Assembly (NCBI RefSeq): GCF_008362905.1
Contig: NZ_VFJB01000001.1
Location: 124,001-188,000 of the forward strand
Reading direction: 5' to 3'
DNA from: Deferribacter autotrophicus
GTDB taxonomy: Bacteria > Chrysiogenota > Deferribacteres > Deferribacterales > Deferribacteraceae
DNA length: 64,000 nucleotides
Below the pieces are notes generated by a model, which ran no database searches, was not told the DNA's origin, and was given only the letters and a program-made list of their open reading frames with translations. Positions 2,980 through 37,598 of this stretch are shown here, piece by piece (within the stretch, counting starts at the first letter, position 1; every line of letters begins with the position of its first letter). The position numbers and the translations under genes were made by a program.

Positions 2980-3807
2980 ATGATTGACTTGCATATGCAT
3001 TCCACATATTCTGACGGCACATTAACACCCCAAGAATTACTAAATTATGCTGAAGAAAAAAAATTAAAAGCCATTGCACTCACAGATCACGATACTGTGA
3101 ATGGTATTGAATCTTTTTTATCAGTAGAAACAGATATTTTGAAAGTCTCAGGCGTGGAAATTAGTATCGATTTTGATCCAGGAACCTTTCACTTAGTTGG
3201 CCTTTTTATCAAACACAACGACGAAAACCTAAAAACAAAGCTTGAAAAACTAAAAAAATACAGGCGTGAAAGAAATAGTAAATTAGTTGAATTAATAAAA
3301 AATCATTTCGGAATTGAAATATCACTATCGGATCTGCAAAAAGATATAGACGGTGAAATTGGAAGACCTCACATTGCAAAATTTCTAATGGATAAAGGTA
3401 TCGTGTCTTCTACTCAAGAAGCCTTTGACAAATATTTAGGCAAAGGTAAGCCTCTTTACATAGCTAAAAAAAGATATTCAGCCATTGAAGGAATAGACAT
3501 GATTAAAAAAGCAAGTGGTATTTCTATTATTGCTCACCCTATCACTCTTGATTTAGAAAATGAACAATTTGATAAATTTACAAAAGAGTTAATAGAATAT
3601 GGTTTGGATGGTATAGAAGTTTTTTGCTCACTTCACACAATAAAAGATAGTAAATTTTATCTTGAAATTGCTAAAAAATATAATCTATTCATTTCAGCAG
3701 GAAGCGATTTTCACGGATTAAATAAAACTGATGTTGATCTTGGCCAAACAAACTGTCCTGAAGAATACCAAAAGTCAATTTACACAAATCTGCTTAAATA
3801 TTTTTAA
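2980..3807 (+). CDS. PHP-domain metal-dependent phosphoesterase (YciV/Rnm-like)
   Basis: A 275-residue PHP-family protein. The metal ligands are visible as DLHMHSTYSDG (His5, His7, Asp12) and LTDHD (Asp36-His37-Asp38), with IIAHP and SAGSDFHG further on, which is the full set for a trinuclear centre. Relatives include nucleases and 3',5'-nucleotide phosphatases of the YciV/Rnm (RNase AM) group; the substrate cannot be told here. No convincing Shine-Dalgarno precedes the ATG, although the start fits the family N-terminus exactly. The 3' end overlaps the convergent gene by 14 bases. Confidence 0.85.
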   Translation: MIDLHMHSTYSDGTLTPQELLNYAEEKKLKAIALTDHDTVNGIESFLSVETDILKVSGVEISIDFDPGTFHLVGLFIKHNDENLKTKLEKLKKYRRERNSKLVELIKNHFGIEISLSDLQKDIDGEIGRPHIAKFLMDKGIVSSTQEAFDKYLGKGKPLYIAKKRYSAIEGIDMIKKASGISIIAHPITLDLENEQFDKFTKELIEYGLDGIEVFCSLHTIKDSKFYLEIAKKYNLFISAGSDFHGLNKTDVDLGQTNCPEEYQKSIYTNLLKYF

Positions 3808-4468
3808 AATTATTATCTTTGTGCGCATTTAAGAACTTCTTAGTTTCTAAATATTCACTCAATAAACTGTTTTCCATTACCGAATAAAGCTCCACTCGAA
3901 TTTGTTGGTTAAATGCCACAACAACCTCCAATCTTAAACAATCCTTTTGCAACATTTCATATAATAAATCCTCCCCCCAATCCCTTTCTGTAAAATCCAT
4001 CCTTTTTACCACAAGCTGATAACAATCTATTTTGGGATATCTTATCTTTATATTTTTGAGCCTGAATATATCTCCATCAAACTTTTTAATACTTCCGTTC
4101 TTAGAAAAAATCCATGAATAACAACTACCTAAAATGGATTTTATTCCTATTATCTCTTTTATATTATTTTTTTTTACAACACATAAATCAGGCTGAATAT
4201 ATCTATTATTATCTGTTTTAAATACAGACTTTTCAGGATAATTTTCATTATCTTCCACAACTTTTCTAAGACTCTCAGAAATCAAAATTAGACTATCTTT
4301 TGATAATTCTATATAATATTTTGAAAGTATTACTTGAAACAGCCATTCAACACCATAATGACTCCCCCCATTTTTTAGTCTATAGTCCCATACATCGAAA
4401 GTTTGTTTTAAAATGTCGTACTCTGAAGATTTTTTTCCAAAAAAATATTTTATTATCTCTTTTAGCAT
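3794..4468 (-). CDS. Uncharacterised 224-aa protein, faintly PD-(D/E)XK nuclease-like
   Basis: I do not recognise this soluble 224-residue protein. A helix GVEWLFQVILSKYY (Glu41), then IQPDLCVV (Asp94) and IIGIKSIL (Lys110) recall the E...PD...xK order of PD-(D/E)XK nucleases. The acidic residue two before the lysine is Gly108, so a nuclease assignment is only a suggestion. It is transcribed alone, with a promoter-proximal dyad (4504-4540) closely matching one in front of the dynamin cluster. That suggests co-regulation and perhaps a shared role. Confidence 0.6.
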   Translation of the reverse strand: MLKEIIKYFFGKKSSEYDILKQTFDVWDYRLKNGGSHYGVEWLFQVILSKYYIELSKDSLILISESLRKVVEDNENYPEKSVFKTDNNRYIQPDLCVVKKNNIKEIIGIKSILGSCYSWIFSKNGSIKKFDGDIFRLKNIKIRYPKIDCYQLVVKRMDFTERDWGEDLLYEMLQKDCLRLEVVVAFNQQIRVELYSVMENSLLSEYLETKKFLNAHKDNNFKNI

Positions 4469-4480
4469 ATCTCACTTTAT

Positions 4481-4509
4481 AGTATAATTTTTTAAATTAT
4501 CATTAGGAA
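4481..4509 (-). promoter_or_regulatory. Promoter of the 224-aa gene
   Basis: On the minus strand, TATACT (4481-4486) lies 17 bases from TTCCTA (4504-4509), a poor -35 that is also the proximal end of the dyad. This is the layout of an activator-dependent promoter. The predicted 5' leader is only a few bases long. Confidence 0.45.
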
Positions 4510-4540
4510 AAATCCTTAAAGGATATAGGGTATTTTCCTA
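4504..4540 (-). promoter_or_regulatory. 37-bp dyad operator, copy A
   Basis: Nested dyad: outer arms TAGGAAAA/TTTTCCTA with ATCC TTAAA GGAT inside. Read on the minus strand it aligns over its whole length with copy B at 11709-11744; the blocks TAGGAAAAT, CCTA, TTTA, GGAT and TTCCT are all conserved. It abuts the -35 region of the 224-aa gene. Confidence 0.6.
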
Positions 4541-4731
4541 TTGTCAAATATTAAAAATTAACAAAAAATTATTTTGGAGTAACAAATATGATTGTTATAT
4601 TCACATTTAGGAACAAAAAGATTTTGCAAAAATTACTTTTAAACTTTCAAAAAACACCAAGGTAACATTTGAATTTAGAGGAAAAAATCACAAAAGTTTT
4701 ATAAATAGATTACTTGATAAATAAAGTGATT

Positions 4732-6486
4732 TTAAATTTTCTCAAGCTCCTTAATTTTATCATTGTAAAAAGCTGTTAATTCATCATCTTTATTAATTTT
4801 TTTATCTTCAAGAGCCTGTTTATAAATTCTTTCTTTTTCAAGATAAGCTTCTATTAATTCATTCCTTATATTTTCTAATATAGTCTCAGTAATTTCATCT
4901 TGTTGTCCTTCTAATCTCGTAATATACTCTGAAAATGTATCATCTATCTGCTCTTCAATAATAGATAATTGTTTTAAAATTTCTTGCTTTTCTTTTTTTG
5001 CCTTAATAAAAATATTATAAGCTACACCTCCTAAGGCAACTATAGCAAAAAGTGGATTGACAGATGCTAATACCGCTCCTCCAAGTACACTACCACCTGT
5101 AATTATTGCATCTATCATATAATCAACCTTAATACTTATTTCAGGTTTTAAATGCTCCTTAATATCATCTAAATACAAAACCTTATTTTTTGAAAAATAG
5201 TTTTTAAGGTCTAACCTCGATTTTTCTTCTTCTAATATCTTTTCTATTTTTTTTAGAAATTTCCTATATAAATTCTCAAAATTTCTTTTCTCAAGATAAA
5301 TACTTTTTCGAATACTATCTTTTATAATTTTTTCAAAATCTGCAACATCATCAATTCCCTCTATATTATTATCTATTCTTTTGCTTAATCTTTCAATTAT
5401 GTTCTCCTTTAATCGCTCAAACAATTTCTGAACCTCTTCAACAAATGAAGTTACCTCACCATCTATTTTAGGCTTAAGTCTTTTTTTAAAAATAGTTACA
5501 TCCTCTTTTAATTTTTCTACTTCCTGTTTTAAATTTTTTAAAGAGTCTTCAAGTTCTTTAGATTCTTTTTTTTGTAATTCTATCTTTTCAATTATTAATT
5601 CTTTTATTCTTCTTTTTAAGACCTCAAGTTTTTTATATTTATTTTCTAAGATATTTTCACCTTTTTTAGTACTCAAATATTCCCATAATTTTTTCTTTAA
5701 AACATCGAAGTTCTCTTTAGTTTTTGCCGAAATCGGAATCAAAGGTGGCGTAGGAATTTTCTGTCCTAACTCAGCTGAAACAATTTTCAAAGATTTTTCC
5801 ATTTCTGTTTTCACAAATTTAATAACCTCATCCCTTTGATTCTCATCTATTAGATCCCAATAATTAAGCAAAAAGAAAATCTTATCCAAATCTTCTTTGC
5901 TCAGAATCTTTTCTTCTAAAAATTCTTTTTCACTTTTTTTCCATGCTTGAGTAGCCATAATCAAATAAAGTATACTATCTGCACGGTTAATAAAACCTAA
6001 TGTTACATCCATTCTTTCAGTTTCAGGATCATTTAAACCTGGAGAATCTACTATAACTATTCCATCTTTTAAAAACTCTGAATTAATATAAACTTCAACT
6101 AAATCAATTTTCTCAACTTCTTCTCCTCCTTTAGCTACGGTATGCTTTAAAATATTTTCAAAATTTTCATGAAATTCTTTTTGTGTCCCATCTTTGTATT
6201 TTAAGACTATTTTTTCCTCTAAACCATATTTTAATACCGTTAGTTTTGCTGTTGTTGTAGTAACATTAGTCGGTAAAACATTTTTACCAATAAAAAACTG
6301 ATTAATAAAAGTAGATTTTCCAGATGAGAAGTCCCCTAAACACAAAACATTAAATGTTAAATCTCTTTGTATCTCTTCTAAAAAGCTATCTATATTTTCA
6401 TTAATATTATTAATATCCAACTCATTTGCAAAGATTTTTAATGTATTTGTTCTTTCAATCAATTCGCTTTTTTTCTCTAAAAACAT
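4732..6486 (-). CDS. Bacterial dynamin-like GTPase 1 of the three-gene cluster
   Basis: A 584-residue large GTPase of the dynamin superfamily, expected to bind, tubulate or fuse membranes. The GTPase domain carries G1 GDFSSGKST (51-59), the switch-I threonine run TTTT (77-80), G3 DSPG followed by LNDP (147-153), and NYWD (208-211) where NKxD is usual. Long coiled coils follow, with a hydrophobic membrane paddle at about 455-494 and a C-terminal helical bundle. An in-frame GTG at 6498 is possible, but the GGGGGAAG stretch favours the ATG at 6486. It is last in a minus-strand operon, 19 bases after dynamin 2. Confidence 0.85.
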   Translation of the reverse strand: MFLEKKSELIERTNTLKIFANELDINNINENIDSFLEEIQRDLTFNVLCLGDFSSGKSTFINQFFIGKNVLPTNVTTTTAKLTVLKYGLEEKIVLKYKDGTQKEFHENFENILKHTVAKGGEEVEKIDLVEVYINSEFLKDGIVIVDSPGLNDPETERMDVTLGFINRADSILYLIMATQAWKKSEKEFLEEKILSKEDLDKIFFLLNYWDLIDENQRDEVIKFVKTEMEKSLKIVSAELGQKIPTPPLIPISAKTKENFDVLKKKLWEYLSTKKGENILENKYKKLEVLKRRIKELIIEKIELQKKESKELEDSLKNLKQEVEKLKEDVTIFKKRLKPKIDGEVTSFVEEVQKLFERLKENIIERLSKRIDNNIEGIDDVADFEKIIKDSIRKSIYLEKRNFENLYRKFLKKIEKILEEEKSRLDLKNYFSKNKVLYLDDIKEHLKPEISIKVDYMIDAIITGGSVLGGAVLASVNPLFAIVALGGVAYNIFIKAKKEKQEILKQLSIIEEQIDDTFSEYITRLEGQQDEITETILENIRNELIEAYLEKERIYKQALEDKKINKDDELTAFYNDKIKELEKI

Positions 6487-6505
6487 ATCTTCCCCCACAT
6501 TTAAT

Positions 6506-8320
6506 TTAATAAAACATTAATTCGCTTTTGAAATTATTTAAACTAACCAACTCTTCTTCGGCAAGTTTCAACGTTTCAAATTGTTTTGACTTAATTAATT
6601 TAATCTTTTCTTCTAAAATAACCTTTTGAGGAAACTTACTTTTTATGTAATTTTCTTTAAATTCCTCAATATTTAACTTTTCAATCTGAGAAATCATTTG
6701 TGATTCAATTTTATCCAGTTCTTTTTTTACCTGATTTAAAAATATCCTTCTCTTTGCTTTTTCTTCAACAACCGTTGCCACATCACCAATTTTCCCCACA
6801 CCCCATTTAGCAACATCAAACAAAACTTTACCTGCAGCTAAGGCAAAAGAACCTATTACAGGCAAAGCTATAGCTCCAACACTTCCAATTCCAGCTAATA
6901 CAGGCCCCACAATAGGAATCCCGGCTAAAAACGGAGCAATTGCAGACAATCCTTCTATTCCAGACGCAATCCCAACTCCAGTTGCCATTGTAGGTAATAA
7001 AGAAGCAACGCCCACTCCACCAGCCGTCAATGCAGTCAGATTAACTATTTTTTTACCTGCACCTGCTTTTTTAGGAGTTGTAAAAATAAAATTAACACCT
7101 GTATCTTTTAAACTTAACACTTTTTCATCAAAATCGGTAATAAGTTTACTGACATCTTTTAAAAATAGTTTTGTATCTTGCTCAATCTTATCTTCTAACA
7201 ATTTTTTCGTTCTTAATTCAATATACCTTGTTCCTGCTAACTGCTCATATGACATATTATTCACTTCATTCGATATCTCAGAATAAACATATTTAATTGA
7301 ATCTTTAATTCTTCTTTTATAATTTTCTTTTATAATATTAAACTCTCTTTCAAAGTTAATCAGTTCCTTATTTATTGCCAACTCAAAGTTTTTCATTTCT
7401 TCATTAATTTTAGCCAACTCTTCTTCATATTTTTTTGCCTTGCCATTTATCTTATCTTCAATAGCTTCTATTTTTAATATAATCGATTCTATAATTCTTC
7501 TTGTTTCATTTTCCAGCCACTCATTCAATAACACCTGCTTATGACTTTTTATAAACTCATCTATGTTTTCAATAAATATCTCATAGCTTTCACTTTTTAT
7601 ACCATTTAATCTATTTTTTAAAACTTCTTTTGCACTATATAAAAATGTATGAGTTTTCAGTGTATCTTTATTCAGCTTTAACAACGTGTTTAATTTGTCT
7701 ATTACTTCATTTTTTACCAAACGAGGATTGTCTACAATATCTGCAAAATTTAAGACAAAAAAGAATTTCTCTAAGTCCTTTTTCCTTATAAGTTTAGAAA
7801 TAAATTGTCTTTCAGTTTCTTTTAATGCTTGATTTATATTCATAACAAAAATTACAACATCCGACTCTCCAACTAGATTGAAAACAATCTCATCAGTAAA
7901 TTTTGAAGGATCATTCGTTCCCGGTGTATCTACAAAAGTATATTCTTGTAAAATAGGGTTATTAAGAAAAACTTCTATTTTATCACTTTTAATATTATCT
8001 ATATTTTCAAGATTTTCCTTAGTTAATTCTCTTCTTTCCCCATCAACCAATAAATAATTATCCGAAGAATATTTGATTTCCGTAATAAAAACTGTAGTGG
8101 GTTGATACTTTGCTGGAAGTAAATCCTCTGCCAAAAAAGAATTAATTAGAGTAGATTTACCTGAACTAAACTCACCAATAACTGCAATTTTAGGCTTAAA
8201 AACGTTAATTTCTTCTTCAAGATCCTGGATTTTATACTTATCATCAAATAGTTTTAACTCATTATACCATGGATAATCGTTATATTTATTTATTATCTCT
8301 CTTAGTTTTCTTAAACTCAT
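6506..8320 (-). CDS. Bacterial dynamin-like GTPase 2, large glycine-rich paddle
   Basis: A 604-residue dynamin-family GTPase. G1 is GEFSSGKST (49-57), G3 DTPG with TNDP (131-137), and G4-like NFAD (191-194). The segment QALKETERQF after G3 is shared with both neighbours. Its distinctive part is a hydrophobic Gly/Ala-rich stretch of about 80 residues (427-505), long enough for a helical hairpin or several membrane passes, between two coiled-coil arms. The ATG at 8320 has GGAGG five bases upstream, ruling out the upstream in-frame TTG. Adjacent paralogues usually form hetero-oligomers in this family; that is inference here. Confidence 0.85.
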   Translation of the reverse strand: MSLRKLREIINKYNDYPWYNELKLFDDKYKIQDLEEEINVFKPKIAVIGEFSSGKSTLINSFLAEDLLPAKYQPTTVFITEIKYSSDNYLLVDGERRELTKENLENIDNIKSDKIEVFLNNPILQEYTFVDTPGTNDPSKFTDEIVFNLVGESDVVIFVMNINQALKETERQFISKLIRKKDLEKFFFVLNFADIVDNPRLVKNEVIDKLNTLLKLNKDTLKTHTFLYSAKEVLKNRLNGIKSESYEIFIENIDEFIKSHKQVLLNEWLENETRRIIESIILKIEAIEDKINGKAKKYEEELAKINEEMKNFELAINKELINFEREFNIIKENYKRRIKDSIKYVYSEISNEVNNMSYEQLAGTRYIELRTKKLLEDKIEQDTKLFLKDVSKLITDFDEKVLSLKDTGVNFIFTTPKKAGAGKKIVNLTALTAGGVGVASLLPTMATGVGIASGIEGLSAIAPFLAGIPIVGPVLAGIGSVGAIALPVIGSFALAAGKVLFDVAKWGVGKIGDVATVVEEKAKRRIFLNQVKKELDKIESQMISQIEKLNIEEFKENYIKSKFPQKVILEEKIKLIKSKQFETLKLAEEELVSLNNFKSELMFY

Positions 8321-8343
8321 AATTACCTCCAAAGTTAAATTAA

Positions 8344-8907
8344 TTATAAATCTTCGTTACATTTTCTTATTAAATTTCTAATTTCAACTACAATTTCAGG
8401 AAATGGTGAGCATTTTTTCTTCAAAGCAATTGCCCTAGTCTTGATATCTGCTATTTTTTCTTCATCATCATTAAACCACCCCTTTGCTTTATGAAATTCC
8501 TTCTCTAAAATATCATATTCTTTATAACAATTTTCCCATAATCTATTACGTTCTTCCTCATTTTTTCTTTTCTTTTCTATTGCACTTATTTTATTTTCAC
8601 ATTCAATTATTAATGTTTGGATATCGTTATTTATAATATCACATTTAGACAATAATTCCTTTGCTCTTAATTTAATATTTTCTAATTCAGATTCATCTGA
8701 TGAACTAAACACGCCACCAGTTGCATTAGCAAATCTTGATTTTAAAATTTTCAATTCATTTAAACATTCTTTTCTAATTTGATTTTCAATTTGCTGTCTA
8801 TATTTAATAATCTTTTTTTGCTCATTATATTTATATCCATTAATAACAATTAAACCTACAACAATAATAATACCTATAATCGGAATTAAATATCTTTTTA
8901 GTTTCAT
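8344..8907 (-). CDS. Single-pass membrane protein with two cysteine-bearing coil repeats
   Basis: A 187-residue unrecognised protein. A positively charged start (MKLKRYL) precedes one transmembrane helix (about 7-23), then two tandem repeats of about 58 residues. Each repeat begins with Cys (CLNELKILK / CYKEYDILE), has an acidic loop, then a helix ending in KC (LLSKC / LKKKC), and closes with a final Cys (IECEN / RKCNE). The C-x~40-C-x13-C spacing suggests disulphide- or metal-stabilised helical hairpins. Placement between the dynamin genes and a strong RBS (AGGAGGGAGGGG) suggest it is the membrane partner of the system; topology is unresolved. Confidence 0.75.
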   Translation of the reverse strand: MKLKRYLIPIIGIIIVVGLIVINGYKYNEQKKIIKYRQQIENQIRKECLNELKILKSRFANATGGVFSSSDESELENIKLRAKELLSKCDIINNDIQTLIIECENKISAIEKKRKNEEERNRLWENCYKEYDILEKEFHKAKGWFNDDEEKIADIKTRAIALKKKCSPFPEIVVEIRNLIRKCNEDL

Positions 8908-8919
8908 ATCCCCTCCCTC

Positions 8920-9378
8920 CTATTTTTCCAAAATGTCTAAAAATTTCTTAATTTTATTTTGTAATCCAAATTCTTTAATATTCGAATCTTCATCTTTTTC
9001 ATTGGTTTTAGCTGAATAAATAAATAATTTGCTTTTAACAATTTCATCATACATTTTGACATTTTTCAAAATACTCTTAACTCTTTTCAAATATTCGTTT
9101 CTTTTCTCTTTTTTATGGTATTTTTTTAGTTCGAATAGTATGTTAAAGAGATAAATTACTGGTATTATTTTATATATTTTATTTATTTCATCGACTATTA
9201 ACTCATCTTTTTCAAGGTCAATTTTAAGAAATTTATCTATTTGAAGAATTTCACTTTTTAAAATCTCTAAAATTTCATTTTCTTCATCACTTATCTGTCT
9301 ATCAAACATCATAACGCTATAAATAGCTTTCAAGAATGATTCCTTTTCTTTATCAGTCAGCAAAAACATTTTTATCAT
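8920..9378 (-). CDS. Small TerB-like helical protein
   Basis: A 152-residue, all-helical, very charged protein. The N-terminal part (LKAIYSVMMFDRQISDEENEI) matches the TerB-like pattern of an acidic turn followed by SxxE, as in proteins linked to membrane-stress modules. It has no signal peptide or transmembrane helix. It begins two bases after the dynamin 3 stop codon, with AAGGAG upstream, so the two are probably translationally coupled. The TerB assignment rests on one short motif; a structure-based search would decide. Confidence 0.6.
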   Translation of the reverse strand: MIKMFLLTDKEKESFLKAIYSVMMFDRQISDEENEILEILKSEILQIDKFLKIDLEKDELIVDEINKIYKIIPVIYLFNILFELKKYHKKEKRNEYLKRVKSILKNVKMYDEIVKSKLFIYSAKTNEKDEDSNIKEFGLQNKIKKFLDILEK

Positions 9379-9380
9379 TA

Positions 9381-10973
9381 TTAACTCCTTTCCTCTAAAT
9401 CTTTTAATTGTTCTTTTGTTTCCTCTAATAATCCTACATCCGCAAGTAATTCATCATTAATAGTTTTTCCTATATTTTTAATTTCGTTAACAAAGTAAGA
9501 CATATCAAAATCCATATTTAACAGATTAAAAATAGTGCCATCACTTAAATTTTCCGAAGCATTCTCACAATTTTTAATGAATTTATAAACATAATCATCA
9601 GAAAGAAGTCCTATTATATATCCAACAATTAAGAGTTGTTTACTATTTTGCAATAAATTCAAATTCGCTGAAAGAGTATCCATTTTTCTATCCAGCTCTT
9701 CTTCTAACTTATTGTTCTTAATTAAATTATTTTCTCTTATCTTTTTTACTTCTAATTTAAACTTTTTAAATTGTTCATGAAATCTAGCTATAAATTCATA
9801 ATATATATTCTGAATATTTTTTCTCATTACATCCAATTCTTCTGCAGTAAAATAAAAAGAAGCAAACTTTAAAAGAGATTCAACATATTCTTTTTTAAAT
9901 AGAGATGTATTTTTTAATCTATTTTCTATTTTATTAACACCTTCTCTAATGATATAAATAATATTTGATTTAATCTCATCTAAATGTGAAATTAAATCTT
10001 CACCAATATCAGACTGGATAAACTTATTAAATTTCTGATTTAATTCATTATTAAGTTTTAAAGTGCTTTGAACAACTTCATTTATTCGCTTGTTTAATTT
10101 TTCAAACTCTTCTTTTAATTGTTTTCGTGAAATCTCTTTATCTTTCTCTAACACTTTCTCTCTTAAATCACCTTCAAGAAGTGCAAATTTCTCACTCCAA
10201 AACTCATCTTTTTTAACACAGGAAATTAAAAATATTTCATCATTTACAAAATAATCTCCAAACTGTATTTGCAAATTTTCGAGAATTTCATTTGATACAT
10301 TTTCGTATTCATTTGGATCACTAACTACTTCATCACCAAAATTAACAACCGCATAAATATTGTCTTTATAAAGAGACTTACTTTTAAACTCTTCTAAGTA
10401 TATTCTTTCTGTTTCTTTTCCTGCCTGACTCGCCTTAAATATCCATATCACATAATTAATATCATCAAAAATTGATTTAGTAAGTTCTCCCAAATTATTT
10501 GGATCATTAAAACCAGGAGTGTCGATAATATGAAAATATTTTAAGATCTCATTGTTAATAAAAACTCTAATTTTCTGTATATTAATGAATTCTTTATTTT
10601 CTTGTTGATTTTGAAAAAACCTCAACTTGTCATACCCATCATACTCTTTTGTAATTATATTTCCACTTGACTCTTTATAAGTAATTTCTATTTTTTCCTT
10701 TTCCGAATATTCCAAAACGGTAACAGCTGAAGTTACAGGCATAAAACCTGTCGGCAAAATATCCATCCCTATTAGCCTATTAATAAAAGATGATTTACCA
10801 CAGCTAAACTCACCAAGTATTGCAAGTTTTAAAGGTTTCTCCGTTATTTCTTCTACCCTATTATAGATATCCTTAAAACAATTATAAATATGAGGCTTTT
10901 CATCCAAGATTTTTGCACTCTTAATTAAGAAATGATACAAAGAAGTCTCTTTAATTTCCGTTGACTTATCCAT
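9381..10973 (-). CDS. Bacterial dynamin-like GTPase 3
   Basis: A 530-residue dynamin-superfamily GTPase. G1 is GEFSCGKSS (54-62), G3 DTPG followed by FNDP (151-157), and G4-like NFGD (211-214). The motif SQAGKETERIYL parallels the other two. The remainder is coiled coil with only one short hydrophobic segment near the C-terminus (about 455-475), so membrane insertion may depend on its partners. The in-frame TTG at 10997 was rejected: AGGAG before the ATG at 10973 fits. It appears to be the first gene of the core operon. Confidence 0.85.
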   Translation of the reverse strand: MDKSTEIKETSLYHFLIKSAKILDEKPHIYNCFKDIYNRVEEITEKPLKLAILGEFSCGKSSFINRLIGMDILPTGFMPVTSAVTVLEYSEKEKIEITYKESSGNIITKEYDGYDKLRFFQNQQENKEFINIQKIRVFINNEILKYFHIIDTPGFNDPNNLGELTKSIFDDINYVIWIFKASQAGKETERIYLEEFKSKSLYKDNIYAVVNFGDEVVSDPNEYENVSNEILENLQIQFGDYFVNDEIFLISCVKKDEFWSEKFALLEGDLREKVLEKDKEISRKQLKEEFEKLNKRINEVVQSTLKLNNELNQKFNKFIQSDIGEDLISHLDEIKSNIIYIIREGVNKIENRLKNTSLFKKEYVESLLKFASFYFTAEELDVMRKNIQNIYYEFIARFHEQFKKFKLEVKKIRENNLIKNNKLEEELDRKMDTLSANLNLLQNSKQLLIVGYIIGLLSDDYVYKFIKNCENASENLSDGTIFNLLNMDFDMSYFVNEIKNIGKTINDELLADVGLLEETKEQLKDLEERS

Positions 10974-11086
10974 TTTCTCTCCTTCTACCAATTTCAACTT
11001 ACTAACTTACACTCCTAATTTTTTACATACCCTGAAAACAAACCTTAACAATCCTTCTTTCTTAGCAAAAACAGTTAAATAAATAT

Positions 11087-11218
11087 TTACGTTACTTTTG
11101 GTAAGATAATACGACGTCTTTCTCTAAAAATTTTAAACAAAATCTTTTCCAAAAAACTTTCTTCTGGAAAAAAAATTACCCTTCTTTTACTTTTACTTTT
11201 CATTTTGATTTCATACAT
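11087..11218 (-). CDS. Possible 43-aa basic peptide
   Basis: A short reading frame (starts MYEIKMKSKSKRR, ends IILPKVT) lies between the 11254 gene and the first dynamin gene. AGAGGAG sits 11 bases before the ATG, slightly too far. The peptide is strongly basic with an amphipathic centre. Its only support is position and a weak RBS. The rest of the 10974-11253 gap shows nothing recognisable. Confidence 0.25.
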   Translation of the reverse strand: MYEIKMKSKSKRRVIFFPEESFLEKILFKIFRERRRIILPKVT

Positions 11219-11253
11219 TCTTTAATCATCTCCTCTTTTAAAACATTTAACAA

Positions 11254-11636
11254 TTAAGGATACACTTCAGTTAATTTAATATCCCCTTCCTTAATATCCT
11301 TAAAAAGCTCTTTTGTTAAAATTTTCATCTGAAAAACCATACAATCATCATGTTTGGCAAACATATTTTCTTTAGTCAAAGCACCTTTGATAACTTTTAA
11401 TTTATCACGATTATTGATAACCCAGCTTTTATAACAGAGATAATAAATCTCATTCATATCCCATTTTACACTACTATCTGCTTTACACGCTGCTACACAC
11501 TTTAAAAAATTAACAAAATAATAAGCAATAGCTTCACACGCTTCTTTATAAAAAAACTTTTTAGCTTTTAAATTTGTAAATGAGACAAAGAGCAACAATA
11601 AAGTTAAAAAATAAAAAGCATTACTTTATTAAACAT
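11254..11636 (-). pseudogene. Small secreted-looking protein, apparent 1-nt frameshift near its start
   Basis: The main frame (11254-11598) encodes about 114 residues beginning at a TTG inside a hydrophobic stretch, without an RBS. A better start is the ATG at 11636 with GGAAG upstream, reading MFNKVMLFIF before a stop. Adding one T in the six-T tract (11606-11611) joins the two frames into a normal signal peptide, MFNKVMLFIFLTLLLLFVS, ending near NLKA. The mature part has five cysteines (YYFVNFLKCVAACKAD, IYYLCYKSW, DDCMVF) and is not recognised. It is either a sequencing error, a real frameshift, or slippage. Confidence 0.5.
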
Positions 11637-11683
11637 AAAAATCTTCCGCATCGCATAACACCCCCCATTTTTGATGGAATTTT

Positions 11684-11744
11684 ATTATAAACCTCAGAAA
11701 ATTTCATTCAGGAATATCCCTAAAATTTTTAGGAAATTTTCCTA
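11684..11744 (-). promoter_or_regulatory. Dyad operator copy B and promoter of the dynamin-cluster operon
   Basis: The 36-bp dyad at 11709-11744 contains AGGAAA T TTTCCT and CCTAAAA T TTTTAGG palindromes and aligns with copy A. TATAAT (11684-11689, minus strand) follows about 19 bases downstream, with no good -35 box. The same geometry as copy A implies an activator that replaces the -35. The leader to the ATG at 11636 would be about 40 bases. Confidence 0.55.
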
Positions 11745-11845
11745 TAATTATCTTGTAGCGTTATAAGAATTGGTTAAAATTTTCTGATGATTTTTTTCAG
11801 ATAAAACAAAAATTATAGCTTATTAAAATTACAAATCTTACAATA

Positions 11846-13537
11846 TTATTTTTTATTTTGAATAGGAATATCTATAAAATAAATTGTACCTTTCTCATTA
11901 GACACAATATTCAGTAAACCTTTTAATAAATAAATCCTCTCTCTGATTGTTACCAATCCGAAATGCCCCTTTTTCGCAAACTCTTTTTCTGCATCAAATC
12001 CCTTACCGTTATCCGAAACAATTAACTTCAACAAATCTCCATTATATTCTACTTGTATATCTATTTTATCACCTCTTGAATGAGTAATTGCGTTATTAAT
12101 AATTTCCTGAACAACTCTAATAATATTTGATGCAATAAAATTATCTATTTCAATCTTCTTTGTTGTTTTTTCTATATTTACGTTAAACGAAAATTCAGAA
12201 TATTTTCTTTCATATTCATCCACCATTTGTAACAACAATTTTTCAAATCCTAACATCTTAATTGTTGATAAAAAATTATCCGCTATAATGCTTCTCAACT
12301 GACTATTTACGCTTTTTACCATTTCAGCCAAATCGTTTTCATTTTTTCTTTTAAGTTGTATGAGTACATAATTCAGCTCTTGCAAAACTGTATCATGAAT
12401 TTCTCTAGCAATTTTTTCTCTTTCTTTATCTTGCACTTTTATAAGTTCACCTACAAAATCTCTCAGTCTAATATTTTCAAGATGAGAAATATAAGCACTT
12501 TTTAATTTGTGTATTTCATCAATTTTTACTTCAAAATCACTATCCAATACTGGTGATGACTTATTAATGAAATTCGCCAGATTTCTAATTGGATTAATAA
12601 TGGTTTTATTGATCTTTTTATAATAATACCGATAAATCAAATAATAGGTTATTAATACTAACAAATTAATAATTATTATAAAAAACAGTAAATTTTTATT
12701 AGATAGTAAAGTTATTTTCAAAACGTATGCTATACCGTAGGGGGTTCCTTTATTAATGTTGAAATTTAAAATTTTATAAAAATTGAAGAAATATACCCCT
12801 TTTTCTATAAGCTCCGACTTATTTTCTTTATACAAACCTTCAAGTTTTTCCAATTGATTCTTATCTACTTTTTTATTACCTAGAGAATAAACTTTAAAGT
12901 CGTTCTGCTCAAAAAAATAAACAACATTTAAATAATAACGAATATCGTCTAACTGCCCTAAAAAACCAAAATTATCTTTCAATTCATTTAATAAATCTAA
13001 TTTGTAACTTAATTGAAGATACATGCCTTTCCCTGGCAAATAATCCAATAAATATAAATGAAAAAACTGATGTGTGATATCAAGAACAGGAAAATCAATT
13101 CTAAACCGTCCACTATTTTTAACATCAATTAATGCTTTTCTTGCATCTTCAAGCTCCCATAAGTTTAATCCAAGCTCTGACTTAAATGTGGTATCATAAA
13201 TCACCCCTTTATTGGATATTAATGCCACATCTACGTTACTATCATGATGTTTATGCTTTATATAATTTACCAACAAAGAAGCTGAAAAAGAATCATTTTT
13301 CTCAATAAAAGTTTTTATATCTTCGTATAACCATACAATATAATCTAATTTTTTATTAACATCTTTCTCAAAAGTGTTAGAAAATGTTTTTATAAAACTT
13401 GATAACGTCAATATGTTATTGTTTAAAATTTTATAAAAAATAAATAGATTAATAATATTTACGGTAATATACAATGACAATACCAAAACAACTATTAATA
13501 TATAATGCTTTTTAAACAAACCTGAGAGCTTTTTCAT
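11846..13537 (-). CDS. NarX/DegS-type sensor histidine kinase (HisKA_3)
   Basis: A 563-residue inner-membrane sensor kinase. TM1 at about 12-37, a periplasmic sensor domain of about 240 residues (38-280), TM2 at about 282-303, a HAMP-like linker, then a HisKA_3 box REKIAREIHDTVLQEL with phospho-His381, and a HATPase_c domain (IINNAITHS, DNGKGF, GLVTIRERI). The ATG overlaps the stop of the response regulator by four bases (ATGA), so the pair is coupled. The sensor domain is not recognised. Its position beside the dynamin cluster makes it a candidate controller of that cluster. Confidence 0.88.
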   Translation of the reverse strand: MKKLSGLFKKHYILIVVLVLSLYITVNIINLFIFYKILNNNILTLSSFIKTFSNTFEKDVNKKLDYIVWLYEDIKTFIEKNDSFSASLLVNYIKHKHHDSNVDVALISNKGVIYDTTFKSELGLNLWELEDARKALIDVKNSGRFRIDFPVLDITHQFFHLYLLDYLPGKGMYLQLSYKLDLLNELKDNFGFLGQLDDIRYYLNVVYFFEQNDFKVYSLGNKKVDKNQLEKLEGLYKENKSELIEKGVYFFNFYKILNFNINKGTPYGIAYVLKITLLSNKNLLFFIIIINLLVLITYYLIYRYYYKKINKTIINPIRNLANFINKSSPVLDSDFEVKIDEIHKLKSAYISHLENIRLRDFVGELIKVQDKEREKIAREIHDTVLQELNYVLIQLKRKNENDLAEMVKSVNSQLRSIIADNFLSTIKMLGFEKLLLQMVDEYERKYSEFSFNVNIEKTTKKIEIDNFIASNIIRVVQEIINNAITHSRGDKIDIQVEYNGDLLKLIVSDNGKGFDAEKEFAKKGHFGLVTIRERIYLLKGLLNIVSNEKGTIYFIDIPIQNKK

Positions 13538-14166
13538 AAACTGATGATATTCAATTTTAGAGCAATTTTTATTAAATCAGCCATTGAATTGATTTCCAAC
13601 TTATTCATAATAGATAATCTTTGATTCTCAACCGTTTTCTGACTTTTACCAAGCAGATATGCTATTTCTTTAGTATTCTTACCTTCAGCGAGTAAAACAA
13701 AAACTTCTTTTTCAGCTTTTGAAAGAGTGAAGTATTTCTCAATTTTTTTATTTATGTTTTCTGATTCATCATATAAATTTCTATCAACAAACATTCCTCC
13801 GTTCAAAACAACCTTCACTGCATCAATAAGATTTTCGTAAACATTATCTTTTGATACAAAACCATTTGCTCCTTTTTTTAAAGCTTCTTCTAGAAAGAAG
13901 TTTTTATACATTGTCAAAACGAGTATTTTTATGTCGTTATATTTTTTTAATTTTTCAAGAACAACAAAACCATCTTCTCCTGGTAAATTGATATCAAGGA
14001 TAACTAAATCTACCTCGTTGTCTTCAATTATCTTATAAGCTTCTTCAGAATTTCCAGCTTCATAGATTTGATTGAATAAATTTTCATCTTGCAAAACTGA
14101 GATTACACCTCTTCTAAATATTGGATGGTCATCAACAATAAGTAAAGAGTAAAAGTTCTTATTCAT
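13534..14166 (-). CDS. NarL/FixJ-family response regulator
   Basis: A 210-residue regulator: receiver domain with acidic pocket VDDHP (Asp12-Asp13), phospho-acceptor Asp58 (LVILDINLPG) and the conserved Lys-containing FVSKDN. A LuxR-type HTH follows (LSKAEKEVFVLLAEGKNTKEIAYLLGKS, TVENQ). It is the partner of the overlapping kinase. NarL-type proteins bind short inverted repeats, so the duplicated dyads at 4504 and 11709 are plausible sites; this is inference. Confidence 0.88.
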   Translation of the reverse strand: MNKNFYSLLIVDDHPIFRRGVISVLQDENLFNQIYEAGNSEEAYKIIEDNEVDLVILDINLPGEDGFVVLEKLKKYNDIKILVLTMYKNFFLEEALKKGANGFVSKDNVYENLIDAVKVVLNGGMFVDRNLYDESENINKKIEKYFTLSKAEKEVFVLLAEGKNTKEIAYLLGKSQKTVENQRLSIMNKLEINSMADLIKIALKLNIISL

Positions 14167-14261
14167 AACTTATGTTTAGTATGATTCCAACTACATTTCA
14201 AGACAAACTAGATTTCGAATTAAGAATTTATAATTCAACATTTAACATTCATAATTCTACA

Positions 14262-36584: not shown

Positions 36585-37598
36585 TCAACCATTTTCTGTA
36601 ACCTCTGTTAAATTTTTTAAATATTCTGGATCATATGGCCTACCGTTTTTTAATACACCAAATATTTGCCTTATCAATTTATTCGCTACTGCTATTATCG
36701 CCAATTTCTTCGCTTTACCTGATGATAAAAGCCTTCTATACAAATTTGAACAAAATTTATTATACCGTATCGCTGACAATGAACATACAAACAATATCTT
36801 CCTTATATAAGCATTTCCTCTCCTTGATATATGTCCCCTTCCCCTTACAGATGTCCCAGATTCCCTAATAGAAGGACACAAACCTATATAACTAACAACC
36901 TCCTTCGCCCTCTTGAAATTACGAAAACACTCCAATTTGCCCAACACTATCGACGCTAACTTCATACCTACTCCAGGAATACTCATAACTAACTCATATT
37001 CCTCTCTATAACGACTTTTCAACAAAACCTCTAGTTCCTGCTCCAATTTCTTAATCTTGCTCTTATAGGCGGAAATTACATCTTTATAACACGATATAAC
37101 CTCTTCTTGTTCATATGGCAATTGGCTAAATCCCTCTATCTGATTATTCAATCTATTTATCTGAGATTGAAAATCCTCTATTGCTTTTAAACGACTATCT
37201 ATCTCATAATATAATTCATCCTTAGGTTTAAATCTCCATTTATAACCATATTCCAGCCCATATTCCGCTATCAATTTGGAATCCGATTTGTCTGTCTTTG
37301 CCTTCCTTAAATTCATATCTGAATATTTCTTTATTGACATCGGATTAGCTACACTTACTTCGTAACCTAACTCCCTACTCAAATGGGTGGCTAATTTTAA
37401 ATGATATACTCCTGTACTTTCCATCATAAAAAGTACTTTCGACCAATCTACTCCTTTTACTTTCTTAAGAAAATCTTTAGTAAAAGATCTTACACTATTG
37501 CTCGTCTCGTAATACTTGTGCGTAGATCCATCATAAAAACTTATTGACAATGTCGACTTTGATACATCAATACCTACCACATTTTCAAATCTTCTCAT
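36585..37598 (-). CDS. IS110-family DEDD recombinase (transposase)
   Basis: A 337-residue intact recombinase. The N-terminal RuvC-like domain shows VGIDVSKSTLSI (Asp), FMMESTGVYH (Glu) and LRKAKTDKSDSKLIAEY (two Asp), the DEDD set. A coiled coil (about 135-195) leads to the C-terminal domain with SIPGVGMKLA and the SGTSVRGRGHISRRGN region that carries the nucleophilic serine in this family. GGAG lies 13 bases before the ATG (spacing slightly long). It works with a bridge RNA encoded upstream in the same element. Confidence 0.93.
   Translation of the reverse strand: MRRFENVVGIDVSKSTLSISFYDGSTHKYYETSNSVRSFTKDFLKKVKGVDWSKVLFMMESTGVYHLKLATHLSRELGYEVSVANPMSIKKYSDMNLRKAKTDKSDSKLIAEYGLEYGYKWRFKPKDELYYEIDSRLKAIEDFQSQINRLNNQIEGFSQLPYEQEEVISCYKDVISAYKSKIKKLEQELEVLLKSRYREEYELVMSIPGVGMKLASIVLGKLECFRNFKRAKEVVSYIGLCPSIRESGTSVRGRGHISRRGNAYIRKILFVCSLSAIRYNKFCSNLYRRLLSSGKAKKLAIIAVANKLIRQIFGVLKNGRPYDPEYLKNLTEVTENG

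What the first reader, a model, noticed from the sequence alone, without database searches (positions are those of the whole stretch)
4732..10973. Three tandem dynamin-like GTPases with a membrane-anchored repeat protein and a TerB-like protein
Seen: three distinct large GTPases (G1 GxFSxGKS/T; DxPG followed by x-NDP; QAxKxxE after it) in one tight operon, interleaved with a single-pass Cys-repeat protein and a small TerB-like protein. Known: bacterial dynamin-like proteins usually occur singly or in pairs, act in membrane remodelling and repair, and one (B. subtilis DynA) delays phage lysis. Inference: a multi-subunit membrane-surveillance or defence machine. The three differ in paddle: about 40 residues, about 80, or almost none, suggesting division of labour.
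Basis: partly seen in the sequence, partly recalled or inferred. Interest (0 to 1): 0.82.

Follow-up and report, generated by a model that had tools for sequence, protein, structure and literature searches.

The report
Three-dynamin membrane operon with anchor protein
A deep-sea vent bacterium carries five tightly packed genes, for three different dynamin-like membrane-remodelling enzymes, a membrane-anchored helical repeat protein and a small helper; the same five genes in the same order turn up in a vent bacterium of another phylum but not in close relatives, so they behave like one transferable machine, possibly for protecting the cell membrane against stress or phages.

Summary
Window 4732-10973 (- strand) encodes three complete Dynamin_N GTPases (DLP3, DLP2, DLP1 in transcription order), with a 152-aa protein (TER) and a single-pass Cys-repeat protein (REP) between the first and second; gaps are 2-12 bp. 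The genome is Deferribacter autotrophicus. Each DLP forms its own well-supported clade across phyla, and the paddle pattern (about 50, about 100, none) is conserved. REP models confidently as two three-helix repeats behind a membrane helix. 'TerB-like' is only suggestive. No defence role is shown; PADLOC's LeoA/LeoBC models match weakly. Beyond the finding, three-DLP operons recur: 10 triplets against 5 pairs in a sample not selected with the window DLPs, other triplets carrying other partners. Papers I could search describe singles, pairs and the split LeoABC. I call this a new variant of a known kind: a three-DLP membrane machine, accessory and probably horizontally transferred, with envelope protection or anti-phage action the likeliest but untested role.

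The parts
9381..10973 (-). DLP3: dynamin-like GTPase without a hydrophobic paddle, first gene of the operon (ATG start; in-frame TTG at 10997)
   Evidence: Dynamin_N 80.6 bits; ortholog in L036 4741-6315, 40% identity, E 3e-112; clade support 100/100
8920..9378 (-).
   Evidence: Ortholog in L036 6296-6763, 32% identity, E 2e-8; no TerB match in Pfam; hhalign to TerB prob 11%, highest of 27 small window proteins
8344..8907 (-). REP: single-pass N-terminally anchored Cys-repeat protein, two three-helix repeats
   Evidence: Ortholog with seven Cys pairs in L036 6756-8240, 494 aa, E 3e-13; AlphaFold2 mean pLDDT 86.4, helices 4-63, 69-88, 93-141, 149-165, 170-186
8839..8895 (-). Predicted membrane helix of REP (about residues 5-23)
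   Evidence: Sequence MKLKRYLIPIIGIIIVVGLIVING; start of predicted helix 4-63; the L036 ortholog has the same N-terminal hydrophobic helix
6506..8332 (-). DLP2: dynamin-like GTPase with the longest hydrophobic paddle (TTG start; ATG at 8320)
   Evidence: Dynamin_N 86.6 bits; ortholog L036 8215-9993, 38% identity, E 5e-121; L037 1e-54; clade 100/99
6785..7120 (-). Low-charge hydrophobic paddle of DLP2 (residues 405-516)
   Evidence: Charge and hydropathy scan; 95 residues in the L036 ortholog
4732..6498 (-). DLP1: dynamin-like GTPase with a short hydrophobic paddle, last gene of the operon
   Evidence: Dynamin_N 95.6 bits; ortholog L036 9986-11725, 43% identity, E 5e-145; L037 9e-73; clade 100/100
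5005..5154 (-). Low-charge hydrophobic paddle of DLP1 (residues 449-498)
   Evidence: Charge and hydropathy scan; 46 residues in the L036 ortholog
3808..14261 (.). Accessory block, not present at this place in the sister species: 224-aa orphan, the five-gene operon, 114-aa ORF and a histidine kinase/response regulator pair, between a PHP gene and the MBL-fold/glnA/glnB genes
   Evidence: Collinear flanks in G001, which carries a cyclopropane-fatty-acyl-phospholipid-synthase-like gene there instead

Best explanation
The five genes encode one transferable membrane-associated dynamin machine. SHOWN from sequence: three anciently distinct, orthologous DLP subunits are kept together with REP and TER, in order and tightly packed, across two phyla; two subunits have hydrophobic paddles and one does not; REP has an N-terminal hydrophobic anchor. 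INFERRED: DLP1 and DLP2 are the membrane-inserting pair (their pair alone occurs in Methyloprofundus) and form a heterotypic, GTP-driven tethering or remodelling assembly like other bacterial DLP pairs. DLP3, with no paddle, is a soluble regulatory or nucleating subunit. REP is a membrane-bound rod of helical repeats, each pinned by a cysteine pair (length variable, two to seven pairs), that recruits or spaces the assembly, and TER is an adaptor, being encoded between DLP3 and REP. The machine probably assembles on the inner membrane when it is damaged or deformed and stabilises or reseals it, so protecting against envelope stress or delaying phage lysis.
For: Same five genes and order in L036, another phylum (the contig's glyS is campylobacterotal, 42-49% against 33-36% to Deferribacterota). 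Each DLP is its own starred clade. Absent from the sister species and all other Deferribacterota searched and from 297 other Campylobacterota, so accessory. Paddle pattern conserved. REP model pLDDT 86 and regular Cys pairs. Known DLP pairs act heterotypically (PMC6104087) and DynA protects membranes and delays phage lysis (PMC8844932).
Against: No functional data. The five-gene form is known from two genomes only. No recognised defence gene, integrase or phage gene lies next to it in the window. No complex was predicted; TER's structure prediction failed. REP topology (which side the repeats face) is not settled. No G4 Lys in any of the three, so nucleotide handling is unproven.
Confidence: 0.5

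Rival explanations
1. A dedicated anti-phage system of the 'Dynamins/LeoABC' kind: the machine is triggered by infection and blocks phage release or kills the cell; REP and TER are sensor and adaptor.
For: Patchy accessory distribution; PADLOC LeoA 3.5e-15 and 1e-21 and LeoBC 7e-10 and 2.8e-13 for DLP1 and DLP2; some other multi-DLP operons sit on plasmids, two of them with integrases nearby; published D. autotrophicus has only a broken CRISPR-Cas (PMC6896113).
Against: PADLOC matches are weak and other DLP families match about as well; no recognised defence neighbours in the window; island-borne dynamins tested in one study were inactive against the phages used (PMC12595487).
Confidence: 0.3
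2. A vesiculation or secretion device: the three DLPs drive membrane vesicle release, as proposed for LeoABC in E. coli.
For: LeoA and LeoB knockouts roughly halve vesicle release (PMC4159319); DLP2 resembles the LeoA profile over most of its length.
Against: No secreted cargo or outer-membrane gene in the operon; the nearest tree neighbour of DLP3 is the Campylobacter-type DLP2, weakly supported.
Confidence: 0.12
3. Ordinary membrane housekeeping DLPs expanded by local duplication; REP and TER are passengers without a joint function.
For: All three are DLPs; Methyloprofundus keeps only DLP2-DLP1.
Against: The three are not recent duplicates: each is nearer its ortholog in another phylum than its operon neighbour. 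REP and TER stay in place across phyla, with overlapping reading frames in L036. Close relatives do without it.
Confidence: 0.08

Closest known systems
Campylobacter jejuni Cj-DLP1/Cj-DLP2 pair (PMC6104087)
   Same: Adjacent, sequence-distinct DLPs that need each other; the Campylobacter-type second DLP is the nearest neighbour of window DLP3 in the tree (weak support)
   Different: Two DLPs, no REP or TER; in the Campylobacter-type pairs read here the first DLP has a long N-terminal extension (G1 at residue 176-177) absent from the window DLPs
LeoABC of enterotoxigenic E. coli (PMC4159319); 'Dynamins' in DefenseFinder and PADLOC
   Same: Tandem DLPs; PADLOC LeoA and LeoBC profiles match DLP1 and DLP2
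   Different: LeoB and LeoC are one DLP split in two, so LeoABC is a two-DLP system; here three complete DLPs plus REP and TER
Bacillus subtilis DynA (PMC8844932)
   Same: DLP with more than one GTPase head; membrane protection and delayed phage lysis
   Different: A single two-headed fusion protein, no accessory proteins known to me; NCBIfam DynA match far below cut-off (66 of 1600 bits)
Nostoc BDLP1/BDLP2 and cyanobacterial tandem cBDLPs (PMC5827413)
   Same: Tandem DLPs with hydrophobic paddle; 2j68, named bacterial dynamin-like protein, is the best PDB match of DLP2, E 2e-10
   Different: Pairs; different neighbouring genes
Other three-DLP operons seen here (NIFGG-repeat type, M48-protease type, Bacilli about 1000-640-590 aa type, Calditerrivibrio plasmid type)
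   Same: Three distinct full DLPs in one operon, often with a small extra gene between them
   Different: Separate DLP clades and different partner proteins; none has REP or TER

Membership tests
Dynamin superfamily, bacterial DLPs | Dynamin_N GTPase domain above curated cut-off | tested here: met
   95.6, 86.6, 80.6 bits against 27
Dynamin superfamily, bacterial DLPs | G1 and G3 motifs; G4 (N/T)KxD | tested here: inconclusive
   G1 and G3 intact; G4 reads NYWD, NFAD, NFGD, Lys absent, also in orthologs
Dynamin superfamily, bacterial DLPs | Hydrophobic membrane-binding paddle or tip | tested here: met
   Met in DLP1 and DLP2, not met in DLP3, same in L036
Dynamin superfamily, bacterial DLPs | GTP-dependent oligomerisation and membrane remodelling | not testable with these tools
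   Needs biochemistry
LeoABC / 'Dynamins' defence system | LeoA plus a second DLP split into LeoB and LeoC (or fused LeoBC) | tested here: not met
   Three intact DLPs, none split; PADLOC matches weak
LeoABC / 'Dynamins' defence system | Anti-phage activity | not testable with these tools
   No assay possible
DynA (NCBIfam NF052648) | Two-headed fused DLP reaching the family cut-off of 1600 bits | tested here: not met
   66.2, 45.9, 38.2 bits
TerB (PF05099) for the 152-aa protein | Pfam TerB match above cut-off | tested here: not met
   No TerB match for either ortholog; no TerB at E 1e-6 anywhere in this genome
TerB (PF05099) for the 152-aa protein | Profile-profile similarity / acidic D-x2-I-S-x2-E motif | tested here: inconclusive
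   hhalign prob 11%, P 0.003, but clearly the top of 27 small window proteins (score 23.5 against at most 15.3)
Spectrin-type repeats for REP | Significant structural match to spectrin repeats | tested here: not met
   Spectrin and plectin repeats are among the top Foldseek hits, but E 0.38 or worse; only the order of helices agrees

The most novel reading that the evidence does not exclude
Three-DLP operons are a widespread, so far unrecognised class of three-subunit bacterial dynamin machines: a three-subunit core that pairs with interchangeable partner modules (anchor plus adaptor, protease plus zinc ribbon, NIFGG repeat, J-domain, LRR). In the type found here, the anchor is a disulfide-pinned envelope rod of variable length that sets where the dynamins assemble.
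Probability: 0.25. Interest if true: 0.85.

Novelty: new variant of a known kind. Interest (0 to 1): 0.6.

Why it matters
Bacterial dynamins are mostly described and studied as singles or pairs. A conserved five-gene unit with three non-redundant DLPs and a membrane anchor, kept intact across phyla, gives a defined set of parts for asking why a cell would need a third dynamin, how bacterial DLPs are placed on membranes, and whether such units protect against envelope damage or phages. The survey suggests triplets are common, so the pair-only picture may be incomplete, and defence annotation pipelines may be giving such operons weak LeoABC labels.

Tried and rejected
TER structure prediction: mean pLDDT 42.6, unusable, so not searched. 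Foldseek of REP against PDB: nothing significant. Viral contigs with DLP2, A4 and A3: no relatives. TER in phages and REP in plasmids: no match. DLP hits in plasmids are generic DLPs with under 80% coverage. Further relatives of DLP1 in samples of 395, 321 and 359 genomes: none beyond L036 and L037, only two weak matches at E about 1e-31. Other 'DLP3' matches in Campylobacterota are generic DLPs at about 73-120 bits, against 987 for the ortholog. 'LeoABC is a known three-DLP operon' was considered and rejected because LeoB and LeoC are one split DLP. Bin contamination as the source of the cross-phylum case was considered and made unlikely by glyS on the same contig. Promoter and terminator scans were no better than shuffles.

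Full report
WHAT IS THERE. On the - strand, in transcription order: DLP3 (9381-10973, alternative TTG at 10997), TER (8920-9378), REP (8344-8907), DLP2 (6506-8332), DLP1 (4732-6498). The gaps are 2, 12, 11 and 7 bp. The three large proteins pass Pfam's Dynamin_N cut-off with a wide margin, and they are the only strong Dynamin_N matches in the genome. G1, G3 and the QAxKxxE stretch are as described; G4 is NxxD without Lys. The searched assembly has 10 contigs (2,535,300 bp) against 12 published (2,543,746 bp).

A scan of one genome per species for about 85,000 species, made with conserved DLP stretches, returned two real relatives well above the rest. L036, a MAG labelled Epsilonproteobacteria (isolate EPR_DSHV_bin 189, which I read as East Pacific Rise deep-sea vent), carries all five genes in the same order with overlapping reading frames: DLP3 (40% identity), TER (32%), REP (33%), DLP2 (38%), DLP1 (43%). 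glyS on the same contig is 42-49% identical to genomes of its own phylum sample and only 33-36% to Deferribacterota, so the contig belongs to its bin's phylum. L037, a Methyloprofundus MAG, has only DLP2-DLP1, beside an antitoxin/PIN-like pair. After these the scores fall to generic DLP level.

DISTRIBUTION. The sister species, all other Deferribacterota genomes searched, and 297 other Campylobacterota lack the five-gene form; samples of 395, 321 and 359 further genomes added none. In the sister species (G001, taken to be D. desulfuricans) the flanking genes are collinear, but the block between the PHP gene and the MBL-fold/glnA genes is different. The operon has 26.4% G+C against 33% on one side and 31% on the other. 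It is therefore accessory. Horizontal transfer is the simplest reading, though no mobile-element gene lies next to it and loss elsewhere cannot be excluded.

ONE UNIT, THREE DIFFERENT SUBUNITS. In a maximum-likelihood tree of 68 GTPase domains, DLP1, DLP2 and DLP3 each form a clade across genomes (supports 100/100, 100/99, 100/100). Each is far closer to its ortholog in another phylum than to its operon neighbours, so the operon was inherited or moved as a set. DLP3 falls, with weak support, near the second DLP of Campylobacter-type pairs and near one of the three DLPs of Bacilli and NIFGG triplets. The low-charge paddle measures 50, 112 and none here, and 46, 95 and none in L036.

REP AND TER. 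REP has an N-terminal hydrophobic helix in both genomes. AlphaFold2 gives a confident model (mean pLDDT 86.4): a 60-residue helix from the membrane, then two three-helix repeats. Six cysteines in the window protein, and fifteen in L036, are spaced so that each repeat has one near the start of its first helix and one at the end of its second, giving seven C-x31..40-C pairs in L036. Disulfides, and hence a periplasmic rod, are an inference; positive-inside reasoning fits that for L036 and is ambiguous for the window protein. Foldseek puts spectrin-type repeats near the top but without significance. TER has no TerB match in Pfam and no usable model. Against a TerB profile made here it scores clearly above 26 other small window proteins, but the probability is only 11%.

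THREE-DLP OPERONS RECUR. A Dynamin_N search of 385 genomes, not selected with the window DLPs, gave 77 same-strand clusters in 56 genomes: 62 single, 5 double and 10 triple, the window's own included (strict E-value, so pairs with a weak partner may count as single). The same search shows that Calditerrivibrio nitroreducens, in the window's order, carries a different triplet on a plasmid. Across all loci read, 58 entries hold triplets (one locus was fetched twice, and the scan that gave most of them favours this motif type). The genes between the DLPs fall into types: an M48 metalloprotease and zinc-ribbon proteins in mostly Firmicutes loci (19 proteins in each cluster), a NIFGG-repeat protein (4 clustered), a J-domain protein (2), LRR proteins (2). 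REP and TER were found only in the window and L036. The papers I could search speak of singles, pairs, fusions and up to eight DLPs per cyanobacterium (PMC6104087, PMC4159319, PMC5827413); one mentions an island with three DLP-superfamily proteins in Helicobacter pylori (PMC8935386). I found no paper describing three-DLP operons as a class, but only open-access PubMed Central was searchable.

HOW IT PROBABLY WORKS. The Campylobacter DLP pair is inactive unless both are present (PMC6104087), and DynA stabilises membranes and delays phage lysis (PMC8844932). By analogy DLP1 and DLP2 are the membrane-inserting pair, DLP3 the soluble third subunit, REP the membrane rod and TER an adaptor. This is inference from anatomy. 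Envelope protection, including against phage lysis, is the role I rate likeliest. A dedicated defence system is the main rival: PADLOC's LeoA and LeoBC models match DLP1 and DLP2 weakly, and other DLP families match similarly. No recognised defence neighbour was seen in the window.

VERDICT. Function, complex formation and the TerB label remain open. New variant of a known kind; interest 0.6.

Noticed in passing
L011 8610-9020, L016 8094-8513, L042 13149-13562, L101 8986-9393: A 135-139-aa protein of tandem 'NIFGG.D' repeats is encoded between the second and third DLP of three-DLP operons in several unrelated genomes; no significant Pfam match.
   Followed up: partly
L038-L115, e.g. L038 11006-12001 and L041 4047-5248: Three-DLP operons, mostly in Firmicutes, carry an M48-family metalloprotease and one or two zinc-ribbon proteins between the DLPs.
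   Followed up: partly
L032 1781-14629 (Ruegeria sp. SCSIO 43209 plasmid unnamed3): Four tandem DLPs followed directly by a protein kinase, an FHA-domain protein and a PP2C phosphatase.
   Followed up: no
L035 11884-17720 (Calditerrivibrio nitroreducens pCALNI01) and L014 9663-15225: A different three-DLP type (566-750-582 aa) on a plasmid and in a second genome of the same order; the third DLP has a long N-terminal extension before G1.
   Followed up: partly
L034 942-7617 (Lysinibacillus capsici pFN9B): Three-DLP operon with an about 1000-aa first DLP on a plasmid, in the same stretch as a fexA resistance gene and a site-specific integrase.
   Followed up: no
L033 3112-4823 (Pseudomonas aeruginosa pPAG5): First DLP of a triplet is annotated as two ORFs (306 + 256 aa), like the LeoC/LeoB split or a frameshift.
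   Followed up: no
window 3794-4468 and 11254-11598: Two orphan ORFs (224 and 114 aa, no significant family match) flank the operon inside the accessory block; the second is Cys-rich.
   Followed up: no
window 36585-37598: Transposase-like ORF, apparently of the IS110 type, lies inside what looks like a branched-chain amino acid ABC transporter gene cluster.
   Followed up: no
window 4732-10973 and L036 4741-11725, L037 8869-12673: The G4 motif lacks the conserved lysine in all DLPs of this type (NYWD/NFWD, NFAD/NWAD, NFGD), which may mean altered nucleotide handling.
   Followed up: partly
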